From Turbatrix aceti (lineage: Eukaryota > Nematoda > Chromadorea > Rhabditida > Panagrolaimidae), in the NCBI GenBank assembly GCA_963969345.1, contig OZ017766.1, positions 7,254,001-7,318,000 on the forward strand: a DNA stretch of 64,000 nucleotides. The letters are read 5' to 3'. The position numbers and the translations under genes are program-made. The notes beneath the pieces were generated by a model that made no database searches, was not told where the DNA came from, and saw only the letters and a list, made by a program, of their open reading frames with translations. This document shows positions 8,041-64,000 of this stretch, in pieces; within the stretch, counting starts at the first letter, position 1; each line of letters opens with the position of its first letter.

Positions 8041-9151
8041 ATGGCAAATTTGACGACATCCTTCGACGATGTAAAAAATGCGATTGCAGTACTCCGATGG
8101 TTTGTATTTTTTTTAATTAGCTGGTATATTTTATATACAAATTTCAGACCAAATGGCAGCTTTGGACCCCAATTCTGAGATGCACGACGAGCTTCTGAAC
8201 GAATTTGTTGTCTTGATTAAAAGAAGAAAAATGCTGGAGAATTACGACCTCTGAACGAACAGCGCGAGATTGACGGCGTCAACAAAGATATCGATGCGAG
8301 ACTGAAAAAGGTGACTGAAGAGCTCGAAGACGAAAGGAAAGAACGTGTTGCCAGCATGTGACCACTTTGACTACGAAGACAAAATCAAAGAACTGCCTAA
8401 ATTGTCCTTGTCCGATAGAAAGTTACTGTAGTACCAATGTTGAAACCGCAAAATTGGTGGTACGACACATGCAAAGATATACGATGGATTTTGAAGATGT
8501 TCCGAAAGAAAGGAATTTCTTTCATGCCGCTGCTTGCTCAAATTGGAGGAAGTATGTTTCAACAGAATTCGAAGGCAGATTCGACGAATTGAACAATGAT
8601 TTATGGTCAGCAGCCAACCTTCCAAACGACACCAAATATCCACTGACACTTGCCGACGTCGATCGCATTATTCACTTGCCGAGTTACAATGAACATATTC
8701 TTGTCGTCTTGGACACATCGCTCCGAGTCATCCTGACGAATGCCGGGTACAGTAAAGAACAGAGATACCCCTGTCTTGTGGTTTACGACTCCATTACCCA
8801 TAAATTTGCTCCTATTTCCAGTGGAAAACAAAAACGTGAGTTCAAAACTTGAAACTTTATAAATTATTTTTTTCGATTTTTTAGAACAAATGGTTTCACA
8901 GGAAGTGCTTCCGTTATGAAACGTATCCGTGGGCCTGCCATGGCAAGTGGTGGTGCCCGATCTGTCTGCGCACAGGAGACGACGTCAAGTGCTCCAAGCC
9001 ATCTTCCGAATCCAAGTTCCAAATCTGTCCAAAATGCAATGCTCACTGTCAAACCGACGATTGCTTCCAAACTCATCAGAAAGTTTGCCCTCGTCCTGTT
9101 TCTGGGCTTCATGACGACATTGTTGAACTTTTACGCAGCATCGCAGTTTAA
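8041..9151 (+). pseudogene. Cys/His-rich zinc-binding protein gene, copy 1 (broken)
   Basis: Three exon-like blocks are homologous to 24866-25968: 8041-about 8099, 8148-8835 and 8885-9151. A splice-acceptor-like TTCTAG ends 5 nt before the ATG. Lesions are an extra base near 8095, a frameshift giving TGA near 8252 and another near 8355. The second half of exon 2 (about 8358-8835) and exon 3 remain open. Exon 3 encodes a Cys-rich region with KCFRYE, CPICLRTG and then C-x2-C-x3-C-x4-C-x3-H-x3-C (CPKCNAHCQTDDC...), resembling MYND or HIT treble-clef zinc fingers. Exon 2 is acidic and helical upstream and has no family I recognise. A poly(A) signal lies at 9247-9252. Confidence 0.55.
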
Positions 9152-9622
9152 ATTTATTTTAAATTTAGAATAAGTTTTTTGTGTTTCATTTTCAATGTTT
9201 TGTTTTAAAGTATACTTTCTATAGAGTGCCTAATATGTATGTAATCAATAAAAAAAATCATGAATGCTTTTAGCCATTTTCTCATCACATATGTAACATC
9301 AATTTTGACACCGTTAACCTAAAATAAACTCTATTTTGTTCGCTTTATCTGTTCGGAAAACTTCATTTTGTTCGCGAACAAACGAGAACAACGAAATTAG
9401 AAAAATGCGCTCGCGAATGAACACAAACAGGAAAATCCGAAAACGACAAAAACAAAGTTTTTCTTGCATTTTTTTCTTTCCGGGACCAAACCGTAGTTTT
9501 TTATTTCACCAGCATTACGATGTATCGTAAGTCACATTGCATACAATAGATTGTTTTTGCATCGAAAAATCTTCGTACGCAGACCGACAGGAAATCGCTG
9601 TTTATTTGTCAGATTTTGTTTC

Positions 9623-19000: not shown

Positions 19001-19231
19001 ACTATTTCTGACGACAAGTGTCAAAGTAACGCTGGCGACCATGGCCCGGTAGTTTGGGTGAAGGGCCTTGTTGAAGACGTAGCAGTGCGCGAAGACGGAT
19101 AATAAAAAAAGGCTTGTCGCGTCGAGAATCATGACACAGGTTAGCGCGGATGCGAGGACGGCATTTCGGTTGATAATTCCGGCAGCGGTACAGTTCCCAA
19201 CCCACGTCGACTCCATTTGGTTTAACGCCAT
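16033..19231 (-). CDS. Sra-superfamily chemoreceptor, complete copy 2
   Basis: Exons 18950-19231, 18649-18852 and 16033-16614 join in phase 0 to 355 aa, normal for this nematode receptor superfamily. About seven hydrophobic segments are visible. Diagnostic blocks are AERVVATVLYKSYE after TM3 and LSARFQRLE before TM6, the pattern of Sra/Srab/Sre proteins. The protein should sit in sensory cilia and couple to G proteins; its ligand is unknown. The 2-kb intron 2 spans the left limit of the visible duplication, so only exons 1 and 2 can be compared with copy 1; these are nearly identical. An acceptor-like TTTAG directly precedes the start codon. Confidence 0.82.
16615..18648 (-). other. Long intron 2 of the chemoreceptor
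   Basis: About 2 kb of A/T-rich DNA. The part from 17565 on is duplicated at 1-1075. Two short stretches are well kept in both copies: one around 18040 and one around 18405, with plus-strand reading NYGSGGYYG in copy 1 and NYGSSGYYG in copy 2. No flanking exon structure supports a gene there. Confidence 0.5.
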
Positions 19232-19567
19232 GCTAAAGACGGAAAAAACGACAACGGTAAATAGTAAATATTAGATTCGACGTCCGATGTCCCCGAAAAA
19301 ACACGCACACGTAATATTAAATAGAACAGTATGTAACACACCTTTTTTTTCACATCGTAATTTTTTTCTCTTTCCTTTTTCTTTTCTTTTCAATGCTGCT
19401 TGTTTTATCCAACAGACAGACACCACGCGGGGTGGGCATTAGCGCCGCCTTAAATGGCACCTTTTCCGTCGGCCAACAAAAACCAGGTATCAGGTACATT
19501 TCAGGTAAATATTTTATGTCCGGCGTTAAAGAGCAGTCAAAAATTTACTATTTAGAAAAATTACAAA

Positions 19568-22500
19568 TTACAAATTTTGAATGATGCACGAAGGTTCTTC
19601 CCATTCGAAAACATTGACGTATCCACACCTGGCCAGGTGATTATTCGAGTTAAAAGGCGCGGAGCCCCCGACGTTACCGGTGCAGGTCGTCTGCTGGATA
19701 TCCGGCTCCCAGCCAATTCCGTTGTTTTCAAATGCCTGAAAAACAGGAAAAAATAATTTTTTTTACAAAATAAAAAGGAAAAAAAACAAAAATTAAAAAA
19801 GAAAAAAAAAAGAAAAAAAAATTTTTTATTAAAAAAAATAAAAAAAGAAAAGAATAAAAAGGAAAATATAAAAAACGTACAAACAAAAAAAAGAAAGGAA
19901 AAAAAATTTTTTAATAAAAAAAATAAAAAAGGAAAAAAAGAAAAAGAAAAGAGAAAAAAATGAAAAAAAAGAAAGAAAAAAGAAAAGGAAGAAAAAAATG
20001 AGAAAAAAATGAAAAAAATGAAAAAATGAAAAAAATGAAAAAAAAAATGAAAATGAAAAAAAAACAAAAAAACAAAAAAAAAATTTTTTTTGTCATCAAC
20101 AAATTATTTCAAAATAACAAAAAACGTCATGTCTCACCTTAAACTCAAGCCATCCACTGGACGTCGAAGCGCAGTCGACGAGTAACTCAACGTACCAGTA
20201 ATCCGCGCCGTACGTATTTTCCTTCCTGTACTCGGGTTGTTTTGCGTCATTTGTGGTCCAAAAAGCGGGAGTGCCAACAGCCTGCGTGCCATCGTGGGTG
20301 CCCTGTTGTCGTTCGGCGCCCTCAAAATCCAGGTAGGTATCTCCCTGCCGCCACATATTATAACCTGCGTAGAAAAACGATGCATTGGAATCATGCTTGA
20401 TGGGAATGGCACACCGGTCTTCGGGTTGGTCAAAATCACCGACAGCACAACTTCCGTGCTGGGTATTTCCGCCACGGATAAAAATTGCCTGGCCGGGTTT
20501 TGTTGGTCGACGGATCATCAGAATTGTCCGTTTCCAGGACGCTGGTACAACCGGTGGGGTTGGCACCCCTCCGATACGGGCTTCAACGTGGATGGCGGTT
20601 ATTGAGTTGCCGGGTACTGTAATTGTTGTTTGTCCGTTGGAAGATACGGTAATTTTAGCTCCTGTGCAGGCGTTGTTGTTTATGTCTCCGTTGTAGACGT
20701 CGCAGTAATCTCCCGGAGGCAGTGAAGTCGGAACCGTTATTTGAGAATCTCCATTTTGGGTATTCAAAGCGAAAAAGCCTTTTTGAAATCTCGCAAAAGC
20801 GACGATTCCATTATTAGCGTAGAGCAAAGTCGGCGCAGTCCCAGAAACTGCCTGTCGGAAAAGTGCCATCTTCCGAATTTCGGGCCAACGATGCTCACAA
20901 ACCCATCCAGAATCCAAAGAACAAGTTTGTGTACCCGAATCAAAAGTAGGGGATTTTGTCTTGAAATCCGGGGCCCCGTAATTCGGAGGACCCTGTGCAG
21001 AGGTAGAAAAGTTGTACGAACTCATGACCCGAGGCAGTCCGTAGCTCCAGGCAAGCATGAAAGCCACAGCGTGCTTGTATTTGTCTCCGTCTTTGTACGT
21101 CGCGACGTAGGGATTTGTATCACGCTGATTATCGTGGTTATCAATGAAATTGAGAACGTCAAAATCATCCAAATTACCGTATCCAAATCCTGGACCCAAT
21201 TTTAGGAGGTCTGACCACGAAGATTGTCCCTTCGCGGCAGCGGATACCGCAGCGCCGAAATTGAAATTTGTATACCGACCAATTCCGATGTATTCGCTGA
21301 CCTTGACGGCTTCTCCGCCACGATCGATGACTTCATGGACGACCAAGGGACGAACATTGTTCCCGAAAATGTCAGCGCGAAGGTTGTTGACACCGGTCAG
21401 GATGTTATCGAGGTCAGTTGGCCACATGTGCTTGGAAGCGTCAAAACGAAAGCCTGCGACACCGTAGCTGACGAGGATATTGAGGTATTCCTGGATCTTG
21501 GTACGCACGTACGCGTTGCCCTGGTCGAGATCGATGAGACCGACGAGGCGACACATTCGGACGTCGTATGCGCTGTTTTGGTAGTCGCTGTCCTGGATAT
21601 CGTGATCGCATTCTTTGTAGTGGGTGTGTTCTTTTGTGAACGGCACTCCCGGGAAAGATTGAACAGGTGCGGTTGCGTCAAAGTCAGAATCACCGGATGA
21701 GCCGACTCCATTGACGCCTTTTTTCTGACCAATGCCTACCATGTGGTTCAGCACGACGTCTACGATTATTCTGAAACAGGTGTTTTTTAAGGATAAAAAT
21801 TAATTTTTTGCAGAATTTTTTTTTCATTTTGTTCAGGTGACATGTAACAATTTTTTTCAAAAATTTTTTTTTCTGAAAATGAATATTTTTTCACATAATA
21901 TTTTTTTAAATTTTAGTTTAAAAATATAAATTTTTTTTTTGATTCCGGGTCTTTGAATATTGTCCAGGTGACCGACCTTACCTGTTTGTTACAAACATTA
22001 AAAATTTTTTTTTTCGATTATTGGTTTTTTTCAGCTGTTTCTCTACAATCATTTTTGTAAAAAAAAATTTTTTTTTAATTTTGGTCAGGTAACTTCACCT
22101 GTGTTTTTTCAAAATTTTTTGTAAATTTTTTTTCAATTTAAATTTTTTTACTTTTTTTTAAACAAAATTCGTAAAAAAGTTATTTTTCTGTTTTTGGGTC
22201 AACGAATTTTGCACAGGTGACCTCACCTGTGTTTTTACAACAATTTTTGTCAAAAAAATAAATTTTTTTCATCTTTGGTTTTTGACCTTTGACCTTACCT
22301 GACGCCGACCTTGTTGCACCGGTTGATCATGTCGATCAATTCCTGCTCATTTCCGCCGCGACTGGTGAGCTTGTAGCTGACCGGCTGGTACCGCACGTAC
22401 CACGGCAGGTCATTGTTCACGGTGAGCGTGATGTGCTCCTGGGGAGGACTGATCTGGACCGCGCCATATCCGTGTTGTTGAAGGAAATTCTCGCATTCGG

Positions 22501-22666
22501 TCGCGACATCGGTCCATTTCCACTCAAAGAGATGAACGAGGGTTTGCTTGTTGATGAGCGTGGTCACGTGATCGTAGGCATAGGGATCCTCAGCGGCGAC
22601 AAAACCCGCGCCAAAGCCAAAAAAGAAGAAGAAGCCGATCACGAGCCAACCAAACTTTAGTCTCAT
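19568..22666 (-). CDS. Secreted alpha-amylase with C-terminal extension, copy 2
   Basis: Exons 22299-22666, 20138-21770 and 19568-19735 have exactly the same lengths as in copy 1 (368, 1633 and 168 nt) and encode 722 aa. All catalytic and chloride-binding residues given for copy 1 are present. I found no amino-acid difference by eye; the substitutions seen, for example near 21657 and 22357, are synonymous. Introns differ more, by homopolymer length and by a diverged block near 21830-21990. Two identical secreted enzymes from one locus suggest selection for dosage, or recent gene conversion. Confidence 0.95.
19736..20137 (-). repeat. Amylase intron 2, polypurine tract (copy 2)
   Basis: Nearly pure A/G on plus between 19745 and 20090; differs from copy 1 only in run lengths and small indels. 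Confidence 0.8.
21771..22298 (-). repeat. Amylase intron 1 with AGGTGA palindromes (copy 2)
   Basis: Same array as 4198-4724. The left third is diverged from copy 1 by substitutions and indels, while the rest is identical. Confidence 0.6.
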
Positions 22667-22711
22667 TATTATTGGCTGTGGTCTCAGGAAGAATTGTATA
22701 ATAGTTCCGCT

Positions 22712-22718
22712 TTTTATA
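22712..22718 (-). promoter_or_regulatory. TATA box of amylase copy 2
   Basis: Same GTATAAAAAG context and 46-bp distance from the ATG as in copy 1; about 330 bp of identical upstream DNA is shared, up to the break at the LTR site. Confidence 0.65.
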
Positions 22719-22945
22719 CTTTTTTTTGCTCTTTCCATGATCACATGCAGACATGCATGGGAGGAGTCAACGTTGCTGGGCTCCTGATTTTTTTTGTGGA
22801 AAGTTTATGGTTTTGATTTTGATTTTGATTTTGATTCCGGAGATGAGATGATGCAGTGTCGAGGGTCGTAAACACTCTCCCCAAAAAAAGTGACAGTCAT
22901 GCTTTTATTTTGCTGTTGGCCACTTTTTTTCAACAACTTTTGCGT

Positions 22946-23662
22946 AAACAATACCGAGTGTCTTTTCTTTGTTTCATTGCGATCGTAAAAAACAAGGCTA
23001 TACTGCCGCCTGGAATGGGAACGGGAATGGGAATGGAAATGGGAATTCGAGGGACCGTATTCGCGAACAAATTCAAAATTTATTTTTCAAGTTTTTTCAT
23101 AAACATTTCTATTTTTTTGAACAAATAAAAGAAACAAAAGGATGCACCAAATTTGGGTATATTTGGAAAATGAAGTCAAAAATGTTGTTATTGATAAAAA
23201 AAATACAAAAAAGTTCATGAAAAAGTTTAGAAAAACTGTTATAAAATGCAAATTACATATTTTTGCTTGAATAAACGAAATTTGACCAAAAAGGTAAAAG
23301 AAATGTTCAATGTTCGTTCGTGTTCGTTCGCGAACGTGGACAAAGTTGTTCATGTTCGTTCGTCTTTGTGAACAAAATTTGAAAAAATAAAATGTTTATG
23401 TTCGTTCAAGAACAAAAAACCGAGTGTTCTGCTTCCATCCTTGGCCGTGTTATCGTGTTATCAGTCGGGACAAAGCCCCTACATCTGACCACGTTATTTA
23501 TTTGACAGTGCAGCTGAAGTTAAGTTGACGTTTGTTTGTCTGACTGCTTGAAGCAAATGAAGTTCTCCCGGCTGACAAGGTTAACTGAAACGAACCCGGA
23601 GAAAAGTTGCCAGAAACGTGTCACGCTGAAGGGCCGGGCCGGGCCCGACAGAGCCGTTAACT
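22946..23662. repeat. 0.7-kb dispersed repeat, copy a
   Basis: Starts at 'aacaataccgagtgtc' and ends near 'gccgttaa'; matched at 26440-27155 with scattered substitutions. It contains GGAATG units, an AT-rich part with GTTCGCGAAC (23326-23335) and a GC-richer end with 'gggccgggccgggc'. No convincing ORF and no terminal repeats were found. Confidence 0.8.
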
Positions 23663-23860
23663 CGAAAACCAATAATTGCCGAAATGAAAAATGATACTTA
23701 TCGATCGTCAATAGTTTCACAAGGAAAATTCCAAAACGATGGTTACCTTTTTATCGTTAGCTAATATTGTCTTTTTGTCCTGTACCGAAAACTGTATGTT
23801 TTTTTAATTAAAAAATTTTTTTTCTGGGTCAGATCATATTTTTAAACAATTGTTTTCAGT
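23663..23860. other. Spacer before the unknown gene (copy 2)
   Basis: AT-rich DNA ending in an acceptor-like 'tgttttcag' just before the homology with copy 1 resumes. This implies that an intron end lies here in the ancestral gene. Confidence 0.45.
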
Positions 23861-24337
23861 AATTCCACTCAAATCCGAGCTCATCTGTGGCTACGCTCTA
23901 AACTGCACCCGCGCAGCCAAGGACATGCCACGCAAAATCACGAATGCCAAAATCGCGGTTCTCGACATGAACCTGCAAAAGGCAAAAATGCTGCTGGGCA
24001 TTTCGATCAAAGTCAGCGATCCGGAGAAACTCGAGCAAATTCGTCGCAAAGAAATCGAAATCACCAAACGCCAGATCGCGAAAATCCTCGCAAAAATCCA
24101 AACTCGACGATGCTCGGCGAAATGAAGCGTTCGATGCACGATGTACTCTGTATCGTGAAACGCGTCCTCAAAAGCATTTTTTTTTTCAGCGCCGGCCTCG
24201 ACCTGATCAACGGCGACATCGTCGACAACAAAGAAACCGGCGTCTTCGAGCCACTCATCAGCAAAATCAAGAGCATCAAATTCGCGAGCATCAAATTCAA
24301 AGAATTGAACGAATGCGAACATTTTTTGCCGTGTTAA
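23861..24337 (+). pseudogene. Unknown gene remnant, two overlapping frames (copy 2)
   Basis: Homologue of 7026-7510, with about the same two frames (to 24125 and 24110-24337). A splice acceptor TTTTCAG lies at its start. The frame break between the two parts is shared by both copies, so it predates the duplication, or the parts are not one protein. Family not recognised. Confidence 0.4.
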
Positions 24338-24865
24338 CAAAAGAACATCGAACAGAATTTTTATCAGTTTTGCAAAAATTTGTTCCCCCGAGTAAAAAAA
24401 CGAAAAATTGGGCAGTCCGCGTTTTCTCATTTTTGATAACAGTTTTTCTACGTCTTTTCATAAACTTTATTTGCCAATTTCTGATCAAAGAACATCTATT
24501 TTTTACAGTTTTTTTTCAATTTTATCCCAATTTTTGTTCGTTTTTAATTGTTCTGACATAAAAATTCAACATTGTTCGCAAACAAATAAATTTAAGAAAA
24601 TTCTGTTCGCGAATGTTCGCCCAACCCTGTTTGGAATGTTCTCCCTTGCAATGATGATCGATGATGAGGAGGGAGAAGGGTATAAAGTCATACCGATTTT
24701 GCGATAACGCAAATAATTCCCGGATGAATCCTTATCACATCTCATGTCAAGCAGAACTCTCCTGAAAAAATATTTTTATGCTCAAGATCATCAGTCTGCT
24801 CGACAGTTCTTTCCAGAAACGGTTGTGTACTTTATTTTTTTTGTGATTGCGATATTCTAGTCAAC

Positions 24866-25968
24866 ATGGCAAATTTGATGACATCCTTCGACGATGTAAA
24901 AAATGCGATTGCAGTACTCCATGGTTTGTATTTTTTTGCTAATTAGCTGGTGTATTTTATATACAAATTTCAGACCAAATGGCAGCTTTGGACCCCAATT
25001 CTGAGATGCACGACGAGCTTCTGAACGAATTTGTTGTCTTGATTAAAAGAAGAAAAATGCTGAAAAATTACACCTCTGAAAGAAAAACGCGAATTTACGA
25101 CGTCAACAAAGATATCGATGAGAGACTGAAAAAGGTGACTGAAGAGCTCGAAGACGAAAGAAAAGAACGCCTTGCCAGCATTGACCACGACTACGAAGAC
25201 AAAGTCAAAGAACTGCCTGAATACTCCTTTCCGATAGAAAGTTACTGTAGTACCAATGTTGAAACCGCAAAATTGGTGGTACGACACATGCAAAGATATA
25301 CGATGGATTTTGAAGATGTTCCGAAAGAAAGGAATTTCTTCCATGCCGCTGCTTGCTCAAATTGGAGCAAGTATGTTTCAACAGAATTCGAAGGCAGATT
25401 CGACGATTTGACCAATAAATTATGGTCAAACGAGCCAACCTTCCAAACGACACCAAATATCCACTGACACTTGCCGACGTCGATCGCATTATTCACTTGC
25501 CGAGTTACAAGAAAGAAATTTTTGTCGTCTTGGACACATCGCTCCGAGTCATCCTGACGAATGCCGGGTACAGTAAAGAACATAAACACCCCTTTCTTGT
25601 GGTTTACGACTCCATTACCCATAAATTTGCTCCTATTTCCATCAGAGAACAAAAACGTGAGTTAAAAACTTGAAACTTTATAAATGATTTTTTCCGATTT
25701 TTTAGAACAAATATTTTTGCGATAAGTGCTTCCGTTACGAACCGGATCCGTGTCCTGCCAGGGCCGATTGTGCCCGATCTGTCTGCGCACAGGAGACGAC
25801 GTCAAGTGCTCCAAGCCATCTTCCGAATCCAAGTTCCAAATCTGTCCAAAATGCAATGCTCACTGTCACACCGACGATTGCTTCCAAACTCATCAGAAAG
25901 TTTGCCCTCGTCCTGTTTCTGGGCTTCATGACGACATTGTAGAACTTTTACGCAGCATCGCAGTTTAA
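24866..25968 (+). pseudogene. Cys/His-rich zinc-binding protein gene, copy 2 (broken)
   Basis: Exons 24866-24923, 24974-25656 and 25706-25968 are suggested by GT-AG junctions. From the ATG (5 nt after TTCTAG) through about 25428 the frame is open; it encodes a charged helical region (KKVTEELEDERKERL) and then a globular part (MQRYTMDFEDVPKERNFFHA). A net 2-nt difference from copy 1 near 25430 shifts the frame. In exon 3 an indel near 25760 separates FCDKCFRYE from CPICLRTG. The lesions differ from those of copy 1, so the common ancestor was probably intact and both copies decayed independently. Exon 3 ends with the C-x2-C-x3-C-x4-C-x3-H-x3-C zinc-finger-like pattern. Confidence 0.55.
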
Positions 25969-26439
25969 ACTTAAATACACTTTTGAATAATTTTTTGTGC
26001 CCTATTTATCGATGTAAGTAGAGTGCCTAATCTGTAATCACTAATAAATAAATAAAAATTATAAAAGATGCCTTGCCACCTTCTCTAATAAAAATCACGA
26101 GTTCGCATTTCCGCTTGTGTTTTGCGTTGTCTTTTTTTTTCAATTTCAATATTTCCGTCGTTAAAAAAATCGATTGCGTGTCTTCACCGTTTGATCAGTT
26201 CAAATCAGTTTATAAATCAGCTTAGTTCGTAGATCATTTAGGTCACAATTTCATCCTTCCGACCCGTGCTACAAAATGTAAAAAAGTTGTCACATTTTTC
26301 AAAAATAAAAAATAAAAAATAAAAAACGGATTTTTTGGAGCGTAACAGTGAACAATTTTTCTTCCGATATTTTTTGTTGACACGAAACTTTTTTTGTTTT
26401 TTTTGGCATTCTTGGGTTTTTCGACTCGACACAGGCTCG

Positions 26440-36495: not shown

Positions 36496-39400
36496 TTAAT
36501 TAAAGAGCTTCATTGATGGAGATCGACGCCGGAATTCGAGCATGAATGCCATACAGGTTACGATGATTGAAATTGTCTGTAAAGAACAAAATTACGGTTT
36601 ATAAAACGTTTTTTTCCCAAAAAAAAATAAAAAATTTGATTATTAAAAAATTAACTTAATTAGTGTAATTAAATAAAAATTATCCATTGCACTTCCAAAA
36701 CGTTTCAAAAAATGGTTCCGCAAATTATAATTAACAAAAAATTGCAAAGAAGTGAAATCCTTTGTTTTTGTTAATTGGCATAAATTTTCTCTCGCCCTCC
36801 TCATCCGGCACTGTTCCCGGAAGTCCAATAATCATTACCGTAAGAATGAGTGGCTTCGATACTACCGCAAAGCCCCAAACAGAGACTCCGAGGTCCGGCT
36901 GGTTGAGGTGTGTTGCGAGCGAGGAAGCCACGTGATAAACATCTTTGTCGAAGCGTCGCCAAATTCGGATATTTCCATACAGGTGGTGTTTTGATTTATC
37001 CAGCTGAAAAGACTTTGTTGTTTTATTTTCTTGTCCTTTTCTGTCTTTTTGCCTCCCCCGAGAACAAATATTATAGCAAAAATAGATGTAGACACAGACG
37101 GAAAACTGTATTCAGAACGTGTGAACGAACTACACGTGTTTTTTTTATAAAAAAATACAAACAATTCCCACGACTGAATAGTTACAAAAATAGGTCTGTT
37201 TTGATCGTATTTTGCCATCGAGGGATTTTGAAAAAATGTGTTAGAATTCATTTGGAAAATTAAATTTACGGGAAAATGCGTTTTTGCTAATTTGGACGAT
37301 TTTTGGTACTTTGTAGCTAGAAAAATGCGGAATTCCGAAATCCTGGGTACGTTTTGATCGACGTAATTTTTTTGATGGCGATTTTGGGAAAAATATAAAA
37401 ATATAGGGTTTTAACCTTAAAAAATGCCAAAAATATGTTTTCATTGATACACTTTTTTAAATACAAAAATTCAATTTTCGGCATTTTTTAGGGTGGTAGC
37501 CCTAAATTTTTATATTTTTTTCGGCACGTCTGTTAAAAATTAAATAAGTCGATCAGTGTCGCAAGTCGATCAAATGCGATATTTTTTAGCTGCAAAGTGC
37601 CAAAAATCGTCAAAAAACATTTTTTTCTGGAAAAAATTCCTAAAAGTACGCTGAAAGTGTTTTTGGAAATTCTTAAACAACTTTGGCACGTTGCAACCAA
37701 AAAAATCCGGTCAGGACAAGAAAATCCGCATGTTGCGAGCAATGTGCTGAATTTTCATGAACTATGAATTACGGATTTAGAGATCATAAATTCAGAGAGC
37801 ACCCAATTGTTGTTTGTTTTTTTTTGTGCAATAAAACAACAATGTTCTCTCCACGCTCGCCTGCACTTTTGCCAGACATAATATTAGAAACCCTTGTTAC
37901 ACGTTTGACCAATTTTCTGCAAATTTGCAACAAAGGTTTTTTTGGTCCGTCTGGTCGGGGCAGGTGGGTGACGTGTCCTCCAGCGACAACGACTAACTCA
38001 CCGCGTTGTGGAGAAGTGCGGGAATGGCGGTGAGGGAAATTAGCTGCAGTACACAAAACAACACGGACGGCACTGCAGCGACGACATTGATAAAAGGCAG
38101 GTTTCGGGCTGTCATTAAATTGAGCACTGAAAATACGGTAACGGGGATCGTACTCCCGATCATGCAGAAAGCATAAATCTCGCAGGAAGCATCCAATGCA
38201 CGAATCGCTTCGCTCAACTTTGCGTGATCGTGGATGAGTTGGACGAGATTGGCGAGAAGGTGTTCGTCGCTGTCGATACTTGCGAGACGATTATTGAAAA
38301 ATTCAACCTCCAAAACAGCACCGTAGACAAACAACAAATAAAGAAAGAGAACAATGCAGAAAGTGAGTATCGTGTAGAGCATCATCGCGAACGAGAGCAC
38401 CAGCGGGTACTTTTCCTGTTTCGCGGCTTCCATAAACTGACGATCGATAATCTGAAGATCCGAGCCAAGAACTAAAATTGCGTGCTTAAAAATCAGCAGA
38501 ATGACGATGAAGAACATGATCACGTAGAAGAAGCGGATGATGCGCCGGAGCTGGGGTTGCCCCGCGATGCATCCTGCTGAGTTTTGAGCTCGATGGAGGA
38601 GTCGGACAAATTTTTTGAAAGCCTGGGATCGTTGCCAGTAGTAGATGAAGCCCTGAAAAATCAGAATGTTCGTGTTCGTTTGCGAACAGATTTTTTCAAA
38701 TTTGTTTTTTTGCGTTTGTTTGCAAACAAAACAAAATTTTTTTAATCGCTAAAACAGAAACAAAATTGATAAAATTATTTGTATTTTGATAAAAAATAAT
38801 AAAAACTTCGATAAGAAAACATTTTTGCTTAAAAAATAATTTTTTCGCTGTTCGTCTACAAACGCATTCAAAAATGTTCGCGTTTGTTTGATTTCGCAAA
38901 AAAAAATTTGTTTATGTTTGTTCGCGAACAGATTTTTCTTTATAACTTTTTTTATTTTGTTTGAAAACAATCAAATTTTTTCAAATTGCTAAAAAACACA
39001 AAATTTTTGGTAAAATGATCGTAACGATGTCAAAACATTTATTATTTGATAAAAATGATACACAATACTCAAAAAAAACTTTTTTTTAAATTTACTTTAT
39101 TCTTTTTTTTACCAAATATTAAAAATAATTTGTTCGAACACAATCAAAAATGTTTTTGTTTGTTTGATTTTTCAAACAAAATTTAAAAAAGTTTCGTGTT
39201 TGTTTGCGAACAAAAAAACTATTGTAGTTCATCCTAGATCAGAATGCAACCTAATTCAAAAAAAAACTGACCAGATTAGCACAAGTTTGCAAGTTGAACA
39301 CGACGTAGACCATTGAATTTATCAGTGCCTTGTTGTCGATAGAGTAAGATGCAATCTTGAGGATCATTTTAATATTGAAAAAACATCCTGCAGATTTTAA

Positions 39401-39708
39401 CAAACCTAACTAACGTAAACCCCCTCAGAATGAAACTCACGAATCAAAACAACAGAAGTGACAACGATCATGTTGATGATAAAGGTTTTCCTGGGTGTGC
39501 CAGGAAAAAATCGACACCTCAGACATGCGAGCATTTTTCGTACCCGCTCTAATTCGTGAACCAGCGGAATATGAGCTTGCGAATCTTTTCTCGTCGTTTT
39601 TCCATGCGAACGTTCTTCTGTTTCTGTGATTTCGTCGATGGCATCGGCATCAGTTTCTCCTGATATCAGGTGTTCTCCGACGATTTCTACACCTCCTCCA
39701 GGTTCCAT
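36496..39708 (-). CDS. Gustatory-receptor-like 7TM protein 1
   Basis: Five exons (39441-39708, 39272-39387, 38002-38652, 36839-37003, 36496-36576) splice in frame to 426 aa. Seven or so hydrophobic helices are visible, with a long acidic N-terminus before TM1. The PDLGVSVWGFAVVSKPLILT block, then TISIIVTCMAFMLEF, is the TM6-TM7 end typical of the arthropod-type gustatory receptor family. The usual TYhhhhhQ motif in TM7 is changed here to TCMAFMLE. Such receptors are ligand-gated cation channels in insects; in nematodes the LITE-1/GUR-3 relatives sense light or peroxide. The ATG follows an acceptor-like CTTGCAG by 2 nt. Neighbouring paralogues share the exon of 116 nt and the penultimate exon of 165 nt. 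Confidence 0.8.
37248..37640. repeat. Foldback element 2 in receptor 1 intron
   Basis: Diverged inverted arms around 'gggttttaaccttaaaaaatgcc' and its complement 'ggcattttttagggtggtagccc', within the intron 37004-38001. Confidence 0.7.
38653..39271 (-). repeat. Intron with GTTCG-palindrome repeats (receptor 1)
   Basis: The 619-bp intron 2 is mostly the AT-rich repeat family, with perfect GTTCGCGAAC at 38920-38929 and relaxed forms near 38668 and 39205. Confidence 0.65.
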
Positions 39709-39952
39709 GCCTGCAAGGTGAGCTAAAAAAATTGGAAAAAGGTTTTTGACAACCAAAAAAAGTATGACAACCGATGCTACGGTCTTCTGTAGTTCCGACA
39801 ATCTTCATGATTTGATGATTTTTTTGGTACACAATGTTGAGGAAAACATACATAGTTGAACAGGGGAGTGGCATCTTCTGAATATTAAATAAATTTTCCT
39901 TTGAACATCGGATAAAAGAATTCCAAAAACAGGCAAAAAGCGATAGTATACA

Positions 39953-40865
39953 ATGGCTCAAAAAGCGTGGATTGCAACTTTTTTGATTTTCTGCAGCTGC
40001 GTTCTGCAATTCGGCGATTGTTCTCCAAATGTGTTCATTACAGGTGGGTTTTGTTTTCGTTTGAAAACATTCTATAATGAATTAAATTGTAGTGAATACA
40101 AGATCCTGCGATGGCATATTTGTCTCTCCGACGTACATACTAACAAGTGCAAACTGTTTCGTAGAAGATGCATCAGCGTGCAAGCAAGGTAAAAAATTAT
40201 CCATTAAATCTCAGGGCATTACTATGCAGGGCGGAAGCAATTGTGTTGATATTGGAATTTCTCCATGTCCAAATCCATCCTTTAAAATTAACGGTACTAA
40301 AGTTATTATTCCTCAAAAATATTTCATAAATGGTTGTGGCTTGGATTCGGATGTTGCAGCGGTAATGATAAATCCGCTTTTTGAAGCAGAACAATATGTC
40401 ACGTATCCCATAAATTTGCTTCCTATCATACCCGATACCCTGACAAGCTATGTTTATCGGCCGGACTGTGAGTTGAATTTTAAATTAGTATCTGATGTGA
40501 AAAATATTGAGACATTTTTTTCGTGTTCAGCGAAGAGCACGTTGAGACTCTTCAAAAGCATCCGCAACAAAATTAGTAAGTGCGACGCAAAAGCACCCGA
40601 CGGTACAATTTGTGCTTCCGTAAAAGACGCAAAAAAATGCTTTGACATCTCGGGAGCAGCGCTTATGGATGGCATGATGGTTTACGGCATTACCAGTAAA
40701 CAAATCAACTGCGATGCAGATTTAGTTACTTCTAATCATTTTGAGGTTCTTGCAACGAACTTGGCAAATCAGCCGGATATCTATTGCACCGTCCATGAAT
40801 GTGCCAAAACTGAGCCGCGTGCTGTTTTCGAATATGAAATTATTACGAATAATGAATTTATTTAA
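39953..40865 (+). CDS. Secreted S1-type pseudoprotease
   Basis: Exons 39953-40043 and 40093-40865 join in frame to 287 aa. Residues 1-about 24 form a signal peptide (MAQKAWIATFLIFC...). The fold signature of chymotrypsin-like proteins is visible: FVSPTYILTSANCF (family: LTAAHCF), SDVAAVMI (family: NDIALL) and CFDISGAALM (family: GDSGGPL). The catalytic His is Asn51, while Asp117 and Ser217 remain, and the GDSGGP loop is altered. It should therefore be inactive as a protease. Nematodes have families of such trypsin-like secreted proteins, some probably immune-related. It lies between receptor genes on the opposite strand. Poly(A) signal at 40909-40914. Confidence 0.75.
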
Positions 40866-41087
40866 TTCAATGTATATTAAATTGCATTTGTAAAGCATTG
40901 ATTTTGTCAATAAAAAGCAACCGGATCTTTTTGAGGCGGAACGTATCATTTTTTTTGTTTTTGAGTAATAAAAAAAACTAAAGAAACGCGCAACTTTGGT
41001 GCCCCCTAGTGCGCTCCCATCTAACACAATTTTCGATTTTCCAGTGCACTCCAGAAAAATCTTTCATTACCTCGACCCAAGAGACGA

Positions 41088-43468
41088 CTAAAAGCTGTTG
41101 ACCAGCGTGCCATTCCCGAAGGACGACTGCCACGGAGGCGAGAGTTGAAGGAGCAGTGTGAGGTACGTCGCGGTTAGTGAAATGGTCTAAATTTGGCATT
41201 TGTTAATTCATTGAATTCTGTTTGTTTAGTTTCGTCAACCACCTACCGTCAAAATGAGAGGCTTGGTTACGATTGCAAAACCCCAAACAGATATTCCGAG
41301 ATTGCCCTGACGAACGTGTGCGACAAAAGCCTGGATAATGCTGTAGATGCGCTCGTTGTAGGGATACCAGAGACGGGTGTTGTTCAGCAGAATGCTCTCT
41401 ACTTTACAGATCGTGTTATGCAGCTTGGCGGGCACAGCCGTTAATCCTATGAGTTCAATATGAGAAAAAAAGATTCCCGGTAGAGCAAGGAAAAAATTCA
41501 TCCATCCAGCGTAGAAACCGGAAATTAGAGACAAAATGGAAAATACGGTTGTTGGAATGTTTGTACCTATCTGAAAAATGTTACCTTTATATGGACTTTT
41601 TATTCCGATGCAAAAGATAACGTTTTGAAATTTTATCAATTTGAGACACGGTGCGAAAAAGAATTTTCCAGCAAAGTTGCGCGCGCGTAATTCGCATTTT
41701 TGCTGTTTTTGGCACGTAATTACTCAAAAACTAAGAGAATTATCCCAGTCAAAAAAACCTACATTCGACTCAGTTTTCGATAGAGAATCCGTAGATAATA
41801 AAAACATGATAGGTCGCACATCGAAAAATGCCGGAATTTTAAAAAGTTGTTTTTTAAAAAAATTTATGTTTTTGAATTTTTTTTTTATCATTTTTGGCAC
41901 CTCTGTAATTTTTCCAGATCTTTGGTTCAGTAAATTCTGTTTGGTATTGAGTTGGCGGATTTTTGCAAAAATTTCATAATGCTATCTTGTTGTATCAGAA
42001 TGCGAAGCCCCGCCCCCAAAAAATTACCATAACAAAGGTATAAACCTCAAAAGCCGCATCAACATCCTGTACCATTCGTGCGAGATCAATATGCTTCATG
42101 AGATGCTCAACAAGCTGTTCCGCGACGAATTCTTGCTTCTCGCCACGCGCTCCAACTTGGGCCAGTTCAGAGTTGAACTGCTGAAGTTCGAAGAGTACAA
42201 CACGGTTAACAACAACAAATAAGGTCAGCACAACGCCCCAGACAAACAATCCATGCATCGTGATAACAAGTGAAAGAAGCTTGAATTTAGGATTAAAAAA
42301 TATGTTGTAATTATCCAAGTCGAGAACTCCGCTGACGCCGATGTCGAGGTGGTGACAGACGACGAGGCCGACAATGAGCGCGCCTGCGAAGATGAACATG
42401 ACGATCCACAGGGTCATGCAGTGAAGAATTGTTCCACGAATCTTACGATAGTTTTTGGAATGATTTGGGTAGTGTACGGTAGCCAGGATACGACGAACAG
42501 AGCCTTTGTACTGCCAATAAACGAAAAAAACCATAGAACACGTGAATTGAAGCATCCAGGAAAGCAGGACAATATCAACGACGTTGGACGGAGCGTCCAG
42601 GTGGGTAATTAGGTGGTAGGACATGAAGGCAGTCTGGTAGAACCCTGCTCAAACGAGAATCACCTTTTATCGATATTCATTATTTACAAGAAATTTTTTA
42701 AGAGATTTGCAAAAAATTAGGTAAATATAGCTGCCTTAGGCATAATTTGGCAGAATTACGGAAAATTGTGTTAGTGTCATTTTTTGACGTTTTTGGAACG
42801 TTGTTAGCAAAAAAACTGCGGCATTTCTAAAACAGAAGTTCATATTGATCGACGGGATTTTTTATGGAAAATTCAAAAAATATGTAAAAATTTAGGTTTA
42901 TCACATTGAAAAATGCCTAAACAAATTTTGTCATTGTAAATATTTTTTGAATGCGATTTTCGGAATTTTTATAGGAGATTATTATAATTTTCAATATTTT
43001 TTTCAAATTCGCCTGAAAAATTACGCCGATAAATTTTTAAGGTTATCATCTCAAAAAATGCCAAAAAAAACTCATTTAATAAAGTGTCATAACGGCAACA
43101 TTTGTTTCGGAATTTTTCAACATAGTAACCTTATATTTTTAAATTTTTCTCTGATTCTCCATAAAAAACCACGTCGATCAAAAAATTGTTTTTTGATTTG
43201 TGAAATCAACAGTTGGAAAAAAATTTCAAAAAAGTTGTCAAATTTTCAAAAACCAACCTCCCAGACAGAAAATCAAGGCGATAGCAAAACGGACGTAATA
43301 CATGATAGGTTCATTCCGGTGCCTTCCGAAATAAAGCCCGGTGGCCTCCATAAGGCCCATGAGAGATTTAAACTTGAACTGGACGGCATCCTGCTTCTCG
43401 GTGTCTGTCTCGTCAGGTCGAGAAAAACCAAGGAGAAGAAAGTTGGTTGTCTGGAGACCCTCGTGCAT
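41088..43468 (-). CDS. Gustatory-receptor-like 7TM protein 2
   Basis: Four exons (43258-43468, 42028-42644, 41247-41570, 41088-41186) join in frame to 416 aa. Landmarks: FCLGGFYQTAF in TM1-TM2, a long intracellular acidic loop (EKQEFVAEQLVEHLMKHIDL), NLGISVWGFAIVTKPLILT before TM7, and TISLTATYLTLLLQL in TM7, which fits the gustatory-receptor motif TYhhhhhQ. The upstream limit of exon 1 is uncertain; I use the first in-frame ATG at 43468. The gene lacks introns present in paralogue 3 and has one at a shifted place after VYTFVM. Tandem with paralogue 3, only 175 bp away, so co-expression is possible. Confidence 0.8.
42733..43220. repeat. Foldback element 3 in receptor 2 intron 1
   Basis: Left arm from 'ggcagaattacgg' to 'atcacattgaaaaatgcc'; right arm with 'tttttcaacatagtaacc' and 'ccacgtcgatcaaaaaatt'. 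More diverged than elements 1 and 5. Confidence 0.65.
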
Positions 43469-43643
43469 GACTTCCGTCGAAAAGAGACGGTTACTGCTTG
43501 TTGACGCAATTATAAAAATTATTCTCGACCCCGGTCGGCACCAAAGAAACAATTAAAGACACACAACCGAAACGACGGCGAAGCGAACTGGTTGGAAGGC
43601 TAAGAAAATAAAATAAAATAAAAACAGGGGTAGGCGGACCGCT

Positions 43644-45841
43644 TCAAAACTCAAAAGACGTGCTGTTTGTCAGAGTGGAATTTTCAGGAGGTTGTTGTTG
43701 GTATACAATCATCAGGTAAGTCATCATGATTGAAATTGTCTGAAAACGAACAGCGAATGGCACTTTTTACGTCTGAATGACTGAACATGTTGCATATTTT
43801 GAACCAACCGTCATAATTGTGGGCTTCGAAAGCGTCGCAAAGCCCCAAAGCGTGAGTCCGAGGTGCCGGTGACGGATGTGGAAGATGAAGAGTTGCACGA
43901 TGATTGTGACCTTCTCGTTGTAGGGATACCACGGTCGATTGCCTCCGAGGATGAGCTTGTCCATGTTGGAAAGCTGAAATCCAAACATTGTGAATCCATA
44001 AATGGTCAAAATTGGGACGGGCGAACGTTTGTTTGTTTTTTATATTTTTTTGTTTGTTCACAAACATTTTTTTTCTTAAATTTTTGTGTCTGTGCACGTT
44101 TGTAAACAACTCAAAAAAATTATGAACTAACAAAAATTTGGTAAAATTAGAAAAACGATGCCAGAATCGTATTTTTTACCAAAACGAACAAAATTTTGTA
44201 GAAATGTTCGTATTTGTTTGATTTTTCGAACAAAATTGCAAAAATGTAGTTTGCGAAAAAAACATCTGTTCATTCATTTTTGGATCAGATAAACACACAA
44301 TTTTGTGGAGCTTTGCAGGATACACGGTGAGACACAAAAGTTGCATGATGCAAAACGCGACGGAAGGCAGCGTGCGGTGGTACATGTGTGAATTCAAAAT
44401 TGTGTTCATCACGCTCACGATTGTCAGGGGAATGTTAATGGCAATCAGCACAAATGCGTAGACCTAAAATTTGTTTGACGAAACATTTGTTTTACACTGT
44501 CCTAATTTTTTTCAAATTTGTCAAACCTGAAAAAATGCATCGACCTTATCAACGATAGAAGCCAGTCTAATATGCCCAATGTACAATTCCAACAACTGAT
44601 CTTCAAGTTCTTCAGGCGAACAATCAGAAGAAGTCGCTTCCCGGAGTCTTTCGCAGAAAAAAACTGCTTCGTAATAAAGCGTGGTGCTGACGATGACAAA
44701 AAATGTGATGACAACTTGGTAAATTATGACAGCATAGTTGATAAATAGAAGATCGATTGGCATCCAGCCAAACACGGAAATCATGCCGATGATCTCGAAA
44801 GACTCGAACAACCGATCCGAGAACAAATTTGACAGGAAGAAAGAAAAAACATAGGCGGCAAAAAGAAATGAGACAAAAAGGGTTATGTTGATGAATTTTC
44901 TAATTTCGGCGTATTTTTTGGTTTTGTTCGGCCAGTGAAGGAGTTCGAAAAGTTTGGTGATGTTTCCGTTTACCTGCCAGTAGATTAGAAAAATCTAAAT
45001 GTTTTTGAATAAAAAAATTGCTTTGCTGAAACCTACGATGCTGAGAAGCGACTGCCAGTGCCATCCAAGGACAAGCATTTGTTTGTACAACAAAGTGTCG
45101 TCTCGGAGATTTGAAAGAAAGTTCCAGGTTTGGATTCCGAAGAAAACAACATCTGAAAACATTGCACTTTGACTTTGCCTGAATGTACAGAAAATGAACG
45201 CGCCAGGAGACATTTTGAAAATTTTTTATGCAATTTTGTCAAAAGTGTTTACAGTAAAATGTACTGTGCCGAAAATCGCATTTAAAAGTGGCCACAATGA
45301 CAAAATTTGTCTTTGGCATTTTTCAAGGTGATACCCCTAAATTTTTATTTTTTTTGGATTGTCTATCAAAAATCGCGTCGATCAAAATGTACTTGAATTT
45401 TGTAAATGCCGTTGTTTTTTTACGTATACAACATGTCAAAAATGGTCAAAATGACAAAAACGCGATTTCTGGAATCATGAAAAAATTCTAAAATTAACAA
45501 TGCCAAATTTCGTATCAAATGGTGTACTTACAAAATACGACAATAGCAATACAGAATCCCTGATGAATCCATTGCTTCCACTGAGCCTTTCGTTTTTCCG
45601 TTCTACTCATAGGAATTTCAGGCTCCAACGGGAGCTCCCAGTAAAGCCCCGTAGTCTTGAGCAGAAATTTTACCCTGCCAAACTTTCCATTGATAGCCTC
45701 CTGTCGCTCGTTTTCGGTTTCGGTATCCGAAGCCCATCCCCAGCTCGTAAAACTCCGGCGAAGTTGTTGGATTACACATCGCTTGTCTGCGGCACACGCA
45801 TTACGGTACTTAGAGCCTTGTGTAATTGCTTTGAACGCCAT
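43644..45841 (-). CDS. Gustatory-receptor-like 7TM protein 3
   Basis: Six exons (45532-45841, 45037-45152, 44527-44994, 44299-44463, 43809-43973, 43644-43739) join in frame to 439 aa. HLGLTLWGFATLSKPTIMT precedes TISIMMTYLMIVYQQ, a clear TYhhhhhQ gustatory-receptor TM7. It has the most introns of the three and may show the ancestral structure. An acceptor TTTTAG lies 18 nt before the ATG. Intron 1 contains half of a foldback element and intron 4 contains GTTCG-type repeats. Role: probable chemosensory or light/redox-sensing channel; ligand unknown. Confidence 0.82.
45255..45480. repeat. Foldback half-element 4 in receptor 3 intron 1
   Basis: Only the right half is present: 'ggcatttttcaaggtgata' through 'aaatcgcgtcgatcaaaat' to 'aaaaacgcgattt'. 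Confidence 0.7.
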
Positions 45842-61134: not shown

Positions 61135-61592
61135 TTCTGTGAAAAGTTTTTATGTGCATGTTTTGGCAGAGTTACGGTTGACGAAAATCGCGTTTTTGCC
61201 TATTTTAACAGTTTTTGGCATGTTTAGCTAAAAAAATTACGGCATCTCCAAAGTCCAGGGTACATTTATGATCGACGTGATTTTTGATGGAGAATCTGAA
61301 AAAAATATAAAAATTTAAGGTTATGACCTTGAAAAATGCCGAAACAATTGTGACTTTTTTAAAAGCGTTTTTCGGCATTTTTCAACGTGATAACCCCATA
61401 TTTTGATATTTTTCTCTGATTCTTCATCAAAAATCACGTCTATCAATTTTTACCTCGGCTTTGGAAATGCCATAGTTTTTGAGCTGCAACATGCCAAAAA
61501 TCGTAAAAATTAGCAAAAACGCGATTTCAGGTGATCGTAACTTTACCAGTTCATTCATGTTTCATGAATTTTACGGTAAAAACTTTTTATAG
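61135..61592. repeat. Foldback element 8, interrupted by LTR element
   Basis: From 'gtgaaaagtttttatgtgc' through the inverted core (gaccttgaaaaatgcc / ggcatttttcaacgtgata) to 'acggtaaaaactttttatag', where the LTR element begins. Confidence 0.82.
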
Positions 61593-61904
61593 TGTAGTAG
61601 TTCTCTATGCCACTCGCGATAGATACTTTACTCACAAGCAAAGACCTGTAACCAATACATATAATACAACATACAACAGGTCCAATCACTACCTCAACAA
61701 GGGTGGAGTTCCGTCGGGTTGAGGTCTTTGGGTTGCTCTGGGCTTGCCTTCGGCCGGGCGTCGATCACGCAGCCAACGAACACGACCGCTCGCGGCGACA
61801 GACAAAACAACAACTGAGACAATAGGAAAGGGAAATACAGGAAACAATTATTCTACGCGAGATAAGAGTGCGCACGCGTTGCACCAACTCGTACTCGCGT
61901 AACA
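61593..61904 (-). repeat. LTR (3' LTR in element orientation), copy B
   Basis: 312-bp direct repeat of 62834-63145; the polypurine tract follows at 61905-61916. Confidence 0.93.
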
Positions 61905-61914
61905 CTTCCCTCTC

Positions 61915-62775
61915 TCAACAGAAACGGACAATAAGGGCTGAATCATGGGACAGGGGCAAATCTCCTTCCTGAGACGTCGTCGTCGGATTCACCCTGCGAC
62001 GGGTAGTCGTCGGGACACGTTTCCTTGCAAACACTCTGCGTCTGCGGCTTCTCGAAATCCGGCGTCGGTTTCGGTTGTCGTCCAAGAGTGCTTCGGCAGG
62101 ACTGATGTTACCGGGAACCATCTTGCTGGGACTGGTTCGGATGCTGAGCAGCATCAGGCGGACTGCTTCCTGCAGGTCCACCACATCGGCGTTCATCTTC
62201 AGTCCATCCGTGAACATGTGCACGTATCGCTCGGCTGGATACGGCAGGGACGGACAATGCTGGATGCTTTGAACATCTTCAATCATAGGCAATAGTGCTG
62301 GGTGCGCTGCCTTCGCACGTGGCACGCACTTGCCTTCGGTGATAACACGAACACTCGCTATCACCACTTTCCCCTCCTTTTTGACATTGCACTGGCTTGC
62401 AATCGTCTGGGGTACCGCTTCTGCTCGTCCTTCAAACTTGACTTTCGAGAGCTGGTCATCGTTGGCTGCTTCTGCGATCCGCACGGCAAGGGTCCGACCG
62501 GCCTGGTCACCCTTCCGTTCATGAATGGTCGCTGCACCGATGTGATCCTGGGATCCTGCGAAGTCGTCGAATTGATGGCACGTGCACTCCTTGACATATA
62601 GACACGACCATCGGGTTTTCTGCTGATTGACCCTGGCCTCCTGGATAGATGATCGCTTTGAGACTGCAACCGCTCCGATTGCTGGCCCTGCAGCTTTCGC
62701 GGCAAGCGGTTTGCTCTTCTTCGCATCCTTCTCGGGCTCGGTCGTGAGATCTGTCTTGTTCGGAGTTGCGGGCAT
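61915..62775 (-). CDS. LTR-element ORF with integrase-like C-terminal half, copy B
   Basis: 286 aa, open from the ATG at 62775, same organisation as 5703-6563. I noticed three amino-acid differences (Pro/Arg, Thr/Met and Leu/Phe). The integrase-like part keeps the Glu of AERYV but lacks the preceding Asp residues. Confidence 0.7.
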   Translation of the reverse strand: MPATPNKTDLTTEPEKDAKKSKPLAAKAAGPAIGAVAVSKRSSIQEARVNQQKTRWSCLYVKECTCHQFDDFAGSQDHIGAATIHERKGDQAGRTLAVRIAEAANDDQLSKVKFEGRAEAVPQTIASQCNVKKEGKVVIASVRVITEGKCVPRAKAAHPALLPMIEDVQSIQHCPSLPYPAERYVHMFTDGLKMNADVVDLQEAVRLMLLSIRTSPSKMVPGNISPAEALLDDNRNRRRISRSRRRRVFARKRVPTTTRRRVNPTTTSQEGDLPLSHDSALIVRFC

Positions 62776-62812
62776 GGCTTGGATCGGCTTCTCGTCACCT
62801 CTGTAGGTCGCC

Positions 62813-62832
62813 GAATCCCACTCTCGTCACCA
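62813..62832 (-). other. Primer-binding site, copy B
   Basis: Plus strand reads GAATCCCACTCTCGTCACCA, ending one base before the LTR. It has the form of a tRNA 3' end: T-arm GAATCCC, acceptor strand, then CCA. The acceptor TCTCGTC would pair with GACGAGA, resembling serine tRNAs from memory; not verified. Confidence 0.65.
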
Positions 62833-62833
62833 A

Positions 62834-63145
62834 TGTAGTAGTTCTCTATGCCACTCGCGATAGATACTTTACTCACAAGCAAAGACCTGTAACCAATACA
62901 TATAATACAACATACAACAGGTCCAATCACTACCTCAACAAGGGTGGAGTTCCGTCGGGTTGAGGTCTTTGGGTTGCTCTGGGCTTGCCTTCGGCCGGGC
63001 GTCGATCACGCAGCCAACGAACACGACCGCTCGCGGCGACAGACAAAACAACAACTGAGACAATAGGAAAGGGAAATACAGGAAACAATTATTCTACGCG
63101 AGATAAGAGTGCGCACGCGTTGCACCAACTCGTACTCGCGTAACA
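62834..63145 (-). repeat. LTR (5' LTR in element orientation), copy B
   Basis: 312-bp direct repeat of 61593-61904, with TG...CA ends. Confidence 0.93.
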
Positions 63146-64000
63146 TATAAGACGATGACAACAAAAATTTTTTTTATGAGCTTTTTTTTTGCGCTTATTT
63201 TCAGCGTTTACGTTATTACACCGTAAAATACCTCAAAAAAGCATATTCCATCGAAGTTGCCCCGAAACTCGGATACATTTTCCATGATGCGTAATTCTGG
63301 CAAATTTACTTTTCAGACATGTTCGAGACGCCTAATTGCCTAAAATCTCTTTTTTTCTGATAACCTGAGTCGCGAACGACCTGTTGACGCTTCTTCTCTT
63401 TTTATTCGATAATTTTGAACACCTAGTCCAAACATGAACGTAAATGTTGCGTTTTTATTCAATCTGGTACACGGTGGCAGTTTGACTTAAATAAACGGTT
63501 TTTTCGCATTATTACTTTTTTTATTACTTTTTTCGTGAAAACGCTTTTTATTCTCAATCAACATAAAAACAATAACAAAAACAACAACAAAGTAACGAAA
63601 AAAAGACGGTAGAGGAATAGGGGGATCACCCTGACGCAGTAACAAAACTTGGCTACTGCGCCACCCCGACGCAGTAGTAGCAAAGTTTGGCCATTGCGCC
63701 AGCCCAACGCAGTAGCAAAGTTTGGCCATTGCGTCAAAGAAGAAAGGGAAGCACAAGACGCAAAAGCACAGGCCCGCCGCAATAACGTAACTTGGCTATT
63801 GCGTCGAGATGGGGGTTGAAAAAATTTACACGACGAATACAATTACAAAAAGTGATACTGTATCCGTTGAAGAGCATTGTCCAAGAAAAATGATAAAGAA
63901 TATCCAGAAACAAATCAAAAAAGGATGAGATTAGAGAAACAATTACGGCGACGATGTTAGCTATTCTGGAGACGCTTTTGATTAACTTGGGTCGATTTCC
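63146..64000. other. Right-end intergenic region
   Basis: No gene seen. It contains the tandem repeat at 63625-63810 and otherwise AT-rich DNA. Confidence 0.55.
63625..63810. repeat. Tandem repeat, ~36-bp unit with inverted ends
   Basis: Three adjacent units and one offset unit follow the pattern GACGCAGTAGCAAAGTTTGG, then CCATTGCGCC and a short spacer. Within each unit GACGCA.TAGC and ..ATTGCGTC are imperfect inverted repeats. Confidence 0.75.

What the first reader, a model, noticed from the sequence alone, without database searches (positions are those of the whole stretch)
36496..45841. Tandem cluster of three gustatory-receptor-like genes in a probable nematode
Three full-length minus-strand genes end in the TM7 pattern TIS..hTYhhhhhQ, known from arthropod gustatory receptors. 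From general knowledge the best-known nematodes have only a few such genes (LITE-1, GUR-3, EGL-47 types), so a local expansion is notable. Receptor 1 has lost the TY..Q motif (TCMAFMLE), which may mean altered function.
Basis: partly seen in the sequence, partly recalled or inferred. Interest (0 to 1): 0.75.

Follow-up and report, generated by a model that had tools for sequence, protein, structure and literature searches.

The report
Nematode taste-receptor trio, acidic-gated pore
A roundworm genome carries three neighbouring genes of the insect taste-receptor family, and one of them shares with other roundworms an unusual acidic residue, followed by a basic one, at the predicted pore gate, a change that laboratory mutants of an insect receptor suggest would likely make the channel open more easily.

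Summary

R1 has not lost its pore motif; it has a conserved other one. All 12 R1-lineage proteins with a readable TM7 have TChhhhh[E/D]h[R/K]. The 12 other readable relatives all have TY; 3 have the acid, none acid plus base. In BmGr9 the glutamine at that place turns into the open pore, and Glu or Asp there raises activity (PMC11062906, passages). My reading: R1 is likely a sensitised gate held by a charge pair. Function is untested. New variant of a known kind.

The parts
36496..36576 (-). R1 exon 5: TM7/predicted pore helix TISIIVTCMAFMLEFRRR (acidic variant) and stop
36839..37003 (-). R1 exon 4 (LDKSKHHLYGN...LGVSVWGFAVVSKPLILT)
38002..38652 (-). R1 exon 3
39272..39387 (-). R1 exon 2
39441..39708 (-). 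R1 exon 1 (start Met by model)
41088..41186 (-). R2 exon 4: TM7/predicted pore helix TISLTATYLTLLLQL
41247..41570 (-). R2 exon 3
42028..42644 (-). R2 exon 2
43258..43468 (-). R2 exon 1
43644..43739 (-). R3 exon 6: TM7/predicted pore helix TISIMMTYLMIVYQQ
43809..43973 (-). R3 exon 5
44299..44463 (-). R3 exon 4
44527..44994 (-). R3 exon 3
45037..45152 (-). R3 exon 2 (116 bp, same length as R1 exon 2)
45532..45841 (-). R3 exon 1 (start Met by model)

Best explanation
The three genes encode nematode proteins of the insect gustatory-receptor (7TMIC) family, predicted to be tetrameric cation channels, and R1 belongs to a nematode lineage in which the glutamine of the predicted pore gate is replaced by an acid followed two residues later by a base, a gate that would likely open more easily than the standard one. 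Shown here: gene structure, family (Pfam for R2; fold of the Panagrellus counterparts of R1 and R2), the age of the cluster, and the conserved TC.....[E/D].[R/K] motif. Inferred: that the proteins form tetramers around the last helix as BmGr9, Orco and MhOr5 do; [quoted passage not shown] that in the closed state the acid pairs with the base of the neighbouring subunit, where BmGr9 has the Gln443-Gln445 hydrogen bond, so that the charge pair holds an otherwise over-active gate shut until a stimulus breaks it; and that R2 and R3 are ordinary stimulus-gated subunits that may co-assemble with R1. Ligand and cell type are unknown.
Against: No function, expression or oligomer was tested. R1 itself has no 7tm_7 match and was not folded; its counterpart was. 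The R1-lineage branch is just under the usual support mark (94/92; 91/91 with five rows left out), and R1 is only 24.5% identical to the Mesorhabditis protein P0013 outside TM7, little more than R2 is (21.8%), so convergence of the motif is not excluded. The Mesorhabditis rows were found with an R1-like query. The last aligned residues in the VIA rows for BmGr9 8uvu pair the acid with residue 446 rather than 443, about one helix turn off the sequence register, for both the R1-type and the TY-type model. In Orco the partner of the gate glutamine is Tyr466 of the TY pair (PMC11062906), a tyrosine that R1 lacks, so the charge pair may not form in the way supposed. Acid without the base occurs too (P0006, P0021, P0022), and the R2-type gate is E in Panagrellus but Q in the window, so the site is not fixed in every branch.
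Confidence: 0.6

Rival explanations
1. R1 is a modulatory or co-receptor subunit that works only in heteromers with R2 or R3; its acid and cysteine tune the shared pore rather than make a channel of its own.
For: R1 and R2 are neighbours here and in the Panagrolaimus davidi gene model P0001. R3 and R2 are only 175 bp apart on one strand. Insect ORs work with Orco as heteromers (PMC7746228, passages).
Against: The 9 Mesorhabditis proteins among the 16 rows are all R1-like in the tree and 8 of them show the motif; no R2-type Mesorhabditis protein was among those rows, so an R2 partner is not shown to be needed there. The search was seeded with an R1-like protein, so this is weak.
Confidence: 0.25
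2. R1 is decaying: the motif change is a lesion of a relaxed or dead receptor.
For: R1 lacks a Pfam 7tm_7 match and the canonical Y and Q.
Against: The frame is open with normal splice sites, and the same altered motif is present in 12 of 12 readable members, from the window's species and from Panagrolaimus, Panagrellus and Mesorhabditis, with an acid that in BmGr9 raises rather than destroys activity.
Confidence: 0.04
3. The cluster is of the LITE-1/GUR-3 kind and senses light or an oxidant rather than an ordinary tastant.
For: C. elegans has five named genes of this kind (lite-1, gur-3, egl-47/gur-1, gur-4, gur-5), and lite-1 and gur-3 act in light responses (PMC8331187, passages; PMC11563456, passages and one section).
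Against: Neither shown nor tested: by the names shown no C. elegans protein was among the hits, so no alignment to the LITE-1 residues W77, R222, S226, C300, W328 (PMC11563456) could be made.
Confidence: 0.1
4. The proteins belong to another 7TM family, such as a nematode G-protein-coupled chemoreceptor family.
For: Nematodes have many such families (recalled); an Srab-like piece lies elsewhere in this window.
Against: Pfam 7tm_7 for R2, relatives named gustatory receptor, and best fold matches confined to insect GR/OR/Orco with a wide gap to everything else, GPCRs included.
Confidence: 0.01

Closest known systems
BmGr9 / Gr43a insect gustatory receptors
   Different: 7-10% identity in those structural alignments; the R1 lineage has C for Y437, E/D for Q443 and R/K for Q445; ligand unknown.
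R2-type nematode proteins, many auto-named gustatory receptor (Panagrolaimus, Panagrellus, Steinernema, Bursaphelenchus, Globodera, Toxocara: first part of P0001, P0003, P0004, P0006-P0009, P0011, P0021-P0025)
   Same: TY motif wherever TM7 is readable; R2 pairs with Panagrellus P0006 (98/92).
   Different: R2 is 42-54% identical to two panagrolaimid counterparts. R3 has no close counterpart among the hits (27.7% to P0006; 35.4% to Toxocara P0025 over 246 columns).
R1-like proteins of Panagrolaimus, Panagrellus and Mesorhabditis (second part of P0001, P0002, P0005, P0012-P0020)
   Same: TC.....[E/D].[R/K] TM7 motif in every readable member, 12 of 12 with R1 counted.
   Different: Mesorhabditis shows several (6 rows of M. 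belari, two of them near-identical, and 3 of M. spiculigera); the own-genome searches found one in the window's species.
C. elegans LITE-1, GUR-3, EGL-47, GUR-4, GUR-5
   Same: Same superfamily by literature (PMC8331187, PMC11563456, passages).

Membership tests
Insect-type gustatory receptors (7tm_7 / 7TMIC) | Match to the curated family profile PF08395 above its cut-off | tested here: inconclusive
   R2 met (34.9 bits, cut-off 26.6); R3 23.2 bits, under it; R1 no match to this profile. R1-lineage relatives P0013 and P0017 carry PF08395 as precomputed.
Insect-type gustatory receptors (7tm_7 / 7TMIC) | 7TMIC fold | tested here: met
Insect-type gustatory receptors (7tm_7 / 7TMIC) | TM7 signature TYhhhhhQF | tested here: inconclusive
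   R2 TYLTLLLQL and R3 TYLMIVYQQ have TY and Q but not F; R1 TCMAFMLEF keeps T and F but not Y and Q.
Insect-type gustatory receptors (7tm_7 / 7TMIC) | Phase-0 intron just before the TM7 motif (recalled as typical of the insect genes) | tested here: met
   Present in R1, R2 and R3 at the same alignment column.
Insect-type gustatory receptors (7tm_7 / 7TMIC) | Tetrameric cation channel with cytoplasmic N-terminus | not testable with these tools
   Needs expression and structure work.
LITE-1 / GUR-3 photoreceptor-like group | Residues W77, R222, S226, C300, W328 of LITE-1 | not testable with these tools
   No LITE-1 sequence was reachable; residues named from PMC11563456.
R1 lineage (named here) | TChhhhh[E/D]h[R/K] in TM7, and one side of a branch in the tree without TM7 | tested here: met
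   12 of 12 readable, of 13 rows; branch 94/92, 91/91 with five rows left out, both just under the 95 mark.

The most novel reading that the evidence does not exclude
Nematodes evolved and kept a charged version of the insect chemoreceptor gate: a ring of four acids at the pore mouth locked shut by an intersubunit acid-base bridge, a natural counterpart of the hyperactive BmGr9 Q443E/Q443D mutants that is tamed by its own basic partner and would open to, and be tuned by, protons, calcium or voltage as well as by a ligand.
Probability: 0.3. Interest if true: 0.72.

Novelty: new variant of a known kind. Interest (0 to 1): 0.5.

Why it matters
Gating of this channel superfamily has been worked out on insect proteins and their mutants. 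A lineage that naturally carries the acid that makes the insect mutant more active, in every readable member with a base two residues on, offers a ready experiment: swap the pair in and out and see whether it sets sensitivity, ion selectivity or pH and calcium dependence. It also shows that an apparent loss of the family's signature motif can be a conserved alternative, and that profile surveys can miss such genes (R1 has no 7tm_7 match). And it points to a branch of nematode receptors that did not appear under a Caenorhabditis name in three searches of limited reach.

Tried and rejected
Own-genome search with the Pfam 7tm_7 profile found nothing, but it rang in no control genome either and missed R2, so it says nothing. 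Own-genome searches with R1, R2, R3, P0013 and P0023 found this cluster and no other close copy (counts there are lower bounds). Two weak places (E 0.083 on C4 and 0.137 on C2) are matched by a DUF267-type query, whose source gene, next to the C4 place, scores 45.5 bits against Pfam DUF267; they are not close copies. LITE-1 or EGL-47 counterparts elsewhere in the genome are not excluded. PDB search by sequence gave no gustatory receptor (no row; two rows up to E 10, best mosquito OR10 at E 0.014). R1's only Pfam rows were two below their cut-offs (Rrn7_cyclin_N, TMEM239), taken as chance. Rfam and tRNA scans of the window were empty. That R1 is an EGL-47 orthologue was considered; no Caenorhabditis name among the 5, 11 and 16 rows, and no C. 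elegans sequence to compare, so left open; one search scored only the 7998 candidates sharing most words. Paper searches for nematode GR families or acidic variants of the motif gave listings of 18 of 19, 25 of 199, 2 of 2, 12 of 1387 and 10 of 119 papers; none of the titles and abstracts shown describes this lineage, and subscription papers are not held. Dropped before counts: P0010 (second form of the same locus as P0007); rows without a readable TM7: P0019, first part of P0001, P0004, P0025.

Full report
What is there. The window lies in a 59.9 Mb genome of 28 contigs (C1:7254001-7318000). On the minus strand between 45841 and 36496 I could read three intact genes with GT...AG introns: R3 (439 aa), R2 (416 aa) and R1 (426 aa), in that order of transcription. 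R3 stop and R2 start are 175 bp apart; R2 stop and R1 start are 1379 bp apart, and an opposite-strand gene with a weak trypsin match sits in that second gap. All three share a phase-0 intron directly before the TM7 motif and a phase-1 intron in the first TM region; R1 and R3 share two further phase-0 introns. This gene structure speaks for one ancestral gene.

Age. Without the TM7 columns R1, R2 and R3 are 22-28% identical to each other, while R1 is 41-43% identical to the Panagrellus and P. davidi R1-type proteins and R2 42-54% to the R2-type ones. P. davidi P0001 is one gene model that runs from an R2-type half into an R1-type half, so the R2-R1 neighbourhood is shared. Steinernema carpocapsae has two R2-type proteins with consecutive locus numbers. 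This is an old cluster. In the tree R1 groups with the panagrolaimid R1-type proteins (100/99), R2 with Panagrellus P0006 (98/92); R3 is a long branch of unsure place.

The pore motif. BmGr9, the insect receptor solved in closed and open states, has the signature 436-TYLVILIQF-444 (PMC11100771, passages). When the channel opens Phe444 turns out and Gln443 turns into the pore; closed, Gln443 bonds Gln445 of the next subunit; Gln443 to Ala inactivates, to Glu or Asp raises activity, and the authors suggest that a negative charge there favours the active state (PMC11062906, passages). In MhOr5 the partner is likewise two residues on (Asn469 for Gln467); in Orco it is Tyr466. In the R1 lineage the corresponding letters are TC.....[E/D][F/L][R/K]. 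The count: 13 R1-lineage rows, 12 with readable TM7; 12 of 12 TC; 12 of 12 acid (9 E, 3 D); 12 of 12 base two on (9 R, 3 K). Other relatives: 15 rows, 12 readable; 12 of 12 TY; 9 Q and 3 E (Panagrellus P0006, Bursaphelenchus P0021 and P0022); base two on in 3 of 12 (Steinernema, all with Q); acid with base in 0 of 12. On the tree an acid needs three changes. The named members come from suborders Tylenchina and Rhabditina. R1 thus looks not like a damaged receptor but like one of a conserved kind.

How it would work (inferred). Four acids at the pore mouth in the open state would make the opening hydrophilic and negative; in the closed state each could pair with the base of its neighbour, at the place of the Gln443-Gln445 bond. 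The acid alone should make the gate eager, as in the insect mutants; the base would hold it until a stimulus breaks the bridge. Tyr437, which in BmGr9 touches a lipid head group in the pore (PMC11100771) and whose change to Phe alters the K/Na permeability ratio (PMC9643425, passages), is Cys here, so selectivity may also differ.

Limits. The branch that unites panagrolaimid and Mesorhabditis R1-like proteins has 94/92 support, 91/91 with five rows left out, and outside TM7 R1 is 24.5% identical to Mesorhabditis P0013 against 21.8% for R2; convergence is possible, and the Mesorhabditis rows were found with an R1-like query. The end of the VIA alignments to BmGr9 8uvu pairs the acid with residue 446, three from the motif register, in both models; only end points were given, so I follow the sequence register. 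No function was measured. By the names shown no Caenorhabditis protein was in the rows, but these searches need shared five-letter words.

Verdict. The paper searches (capped listings, seven papers seen in passages and one of these also in a section) showed no description of this lineage.

Noticed in passing
G000 C4:11018425-11023762, C2:10275494-10288374, C2:9235184-9236568, C2:3892558-3893867 (L029, L030, L043-L046): Ten gene-like groups of Pfam DUF267 type (45.5 bits, cut-off 25, for one hand-joined model; places), two of the places with several in a row. Their profile aligns with the GR-family profile over 297 columns (hhalign probability 96%, E 4.7e-9 for this single comparison), so DUF267 may be a cryptic branch of the same superfamily; one paper names DUF267 beside insect chemoreceptors among families set apart from GPCRs (PMC3251606, one passage).
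   Followed up: partly
1-9183 and 17565-25999: Recent-looking segmental duplication: 1-5380 with 17565-22954 at 97.3% and 7030-9183 with 23857-25999 at 95.0%. It carries an alpha-amylase frame and an Srab-like receptor piece twice (frames; Pfam on the first copies).
   Followed up: partly
5377-6934 and 61589-63149: Two copies (99.4%) of an element with 312-bp direct terminal repeats, 99.7-100% alike, probably a recently moved LTR-type element; no Pfam match of use for one frame.
   Followed up: no
39953-40865 +: Opposite-strand gene between R2 and R1 with a weak trypsin match (21.7 bits, cut-off 20.6; 40086-40865 tested).
   Followed up: no
16033-16629 -: Open frame that looks like part of a multi-pass receptor; no Pfam match at a useful level.
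   Followed up: no
P0012-P0020: Mesorhabditis belari and M. spiculigera show several R1-like receptors each, three of the M. belari ones with D instead of E at the predicted gate.
   Followed up: partly
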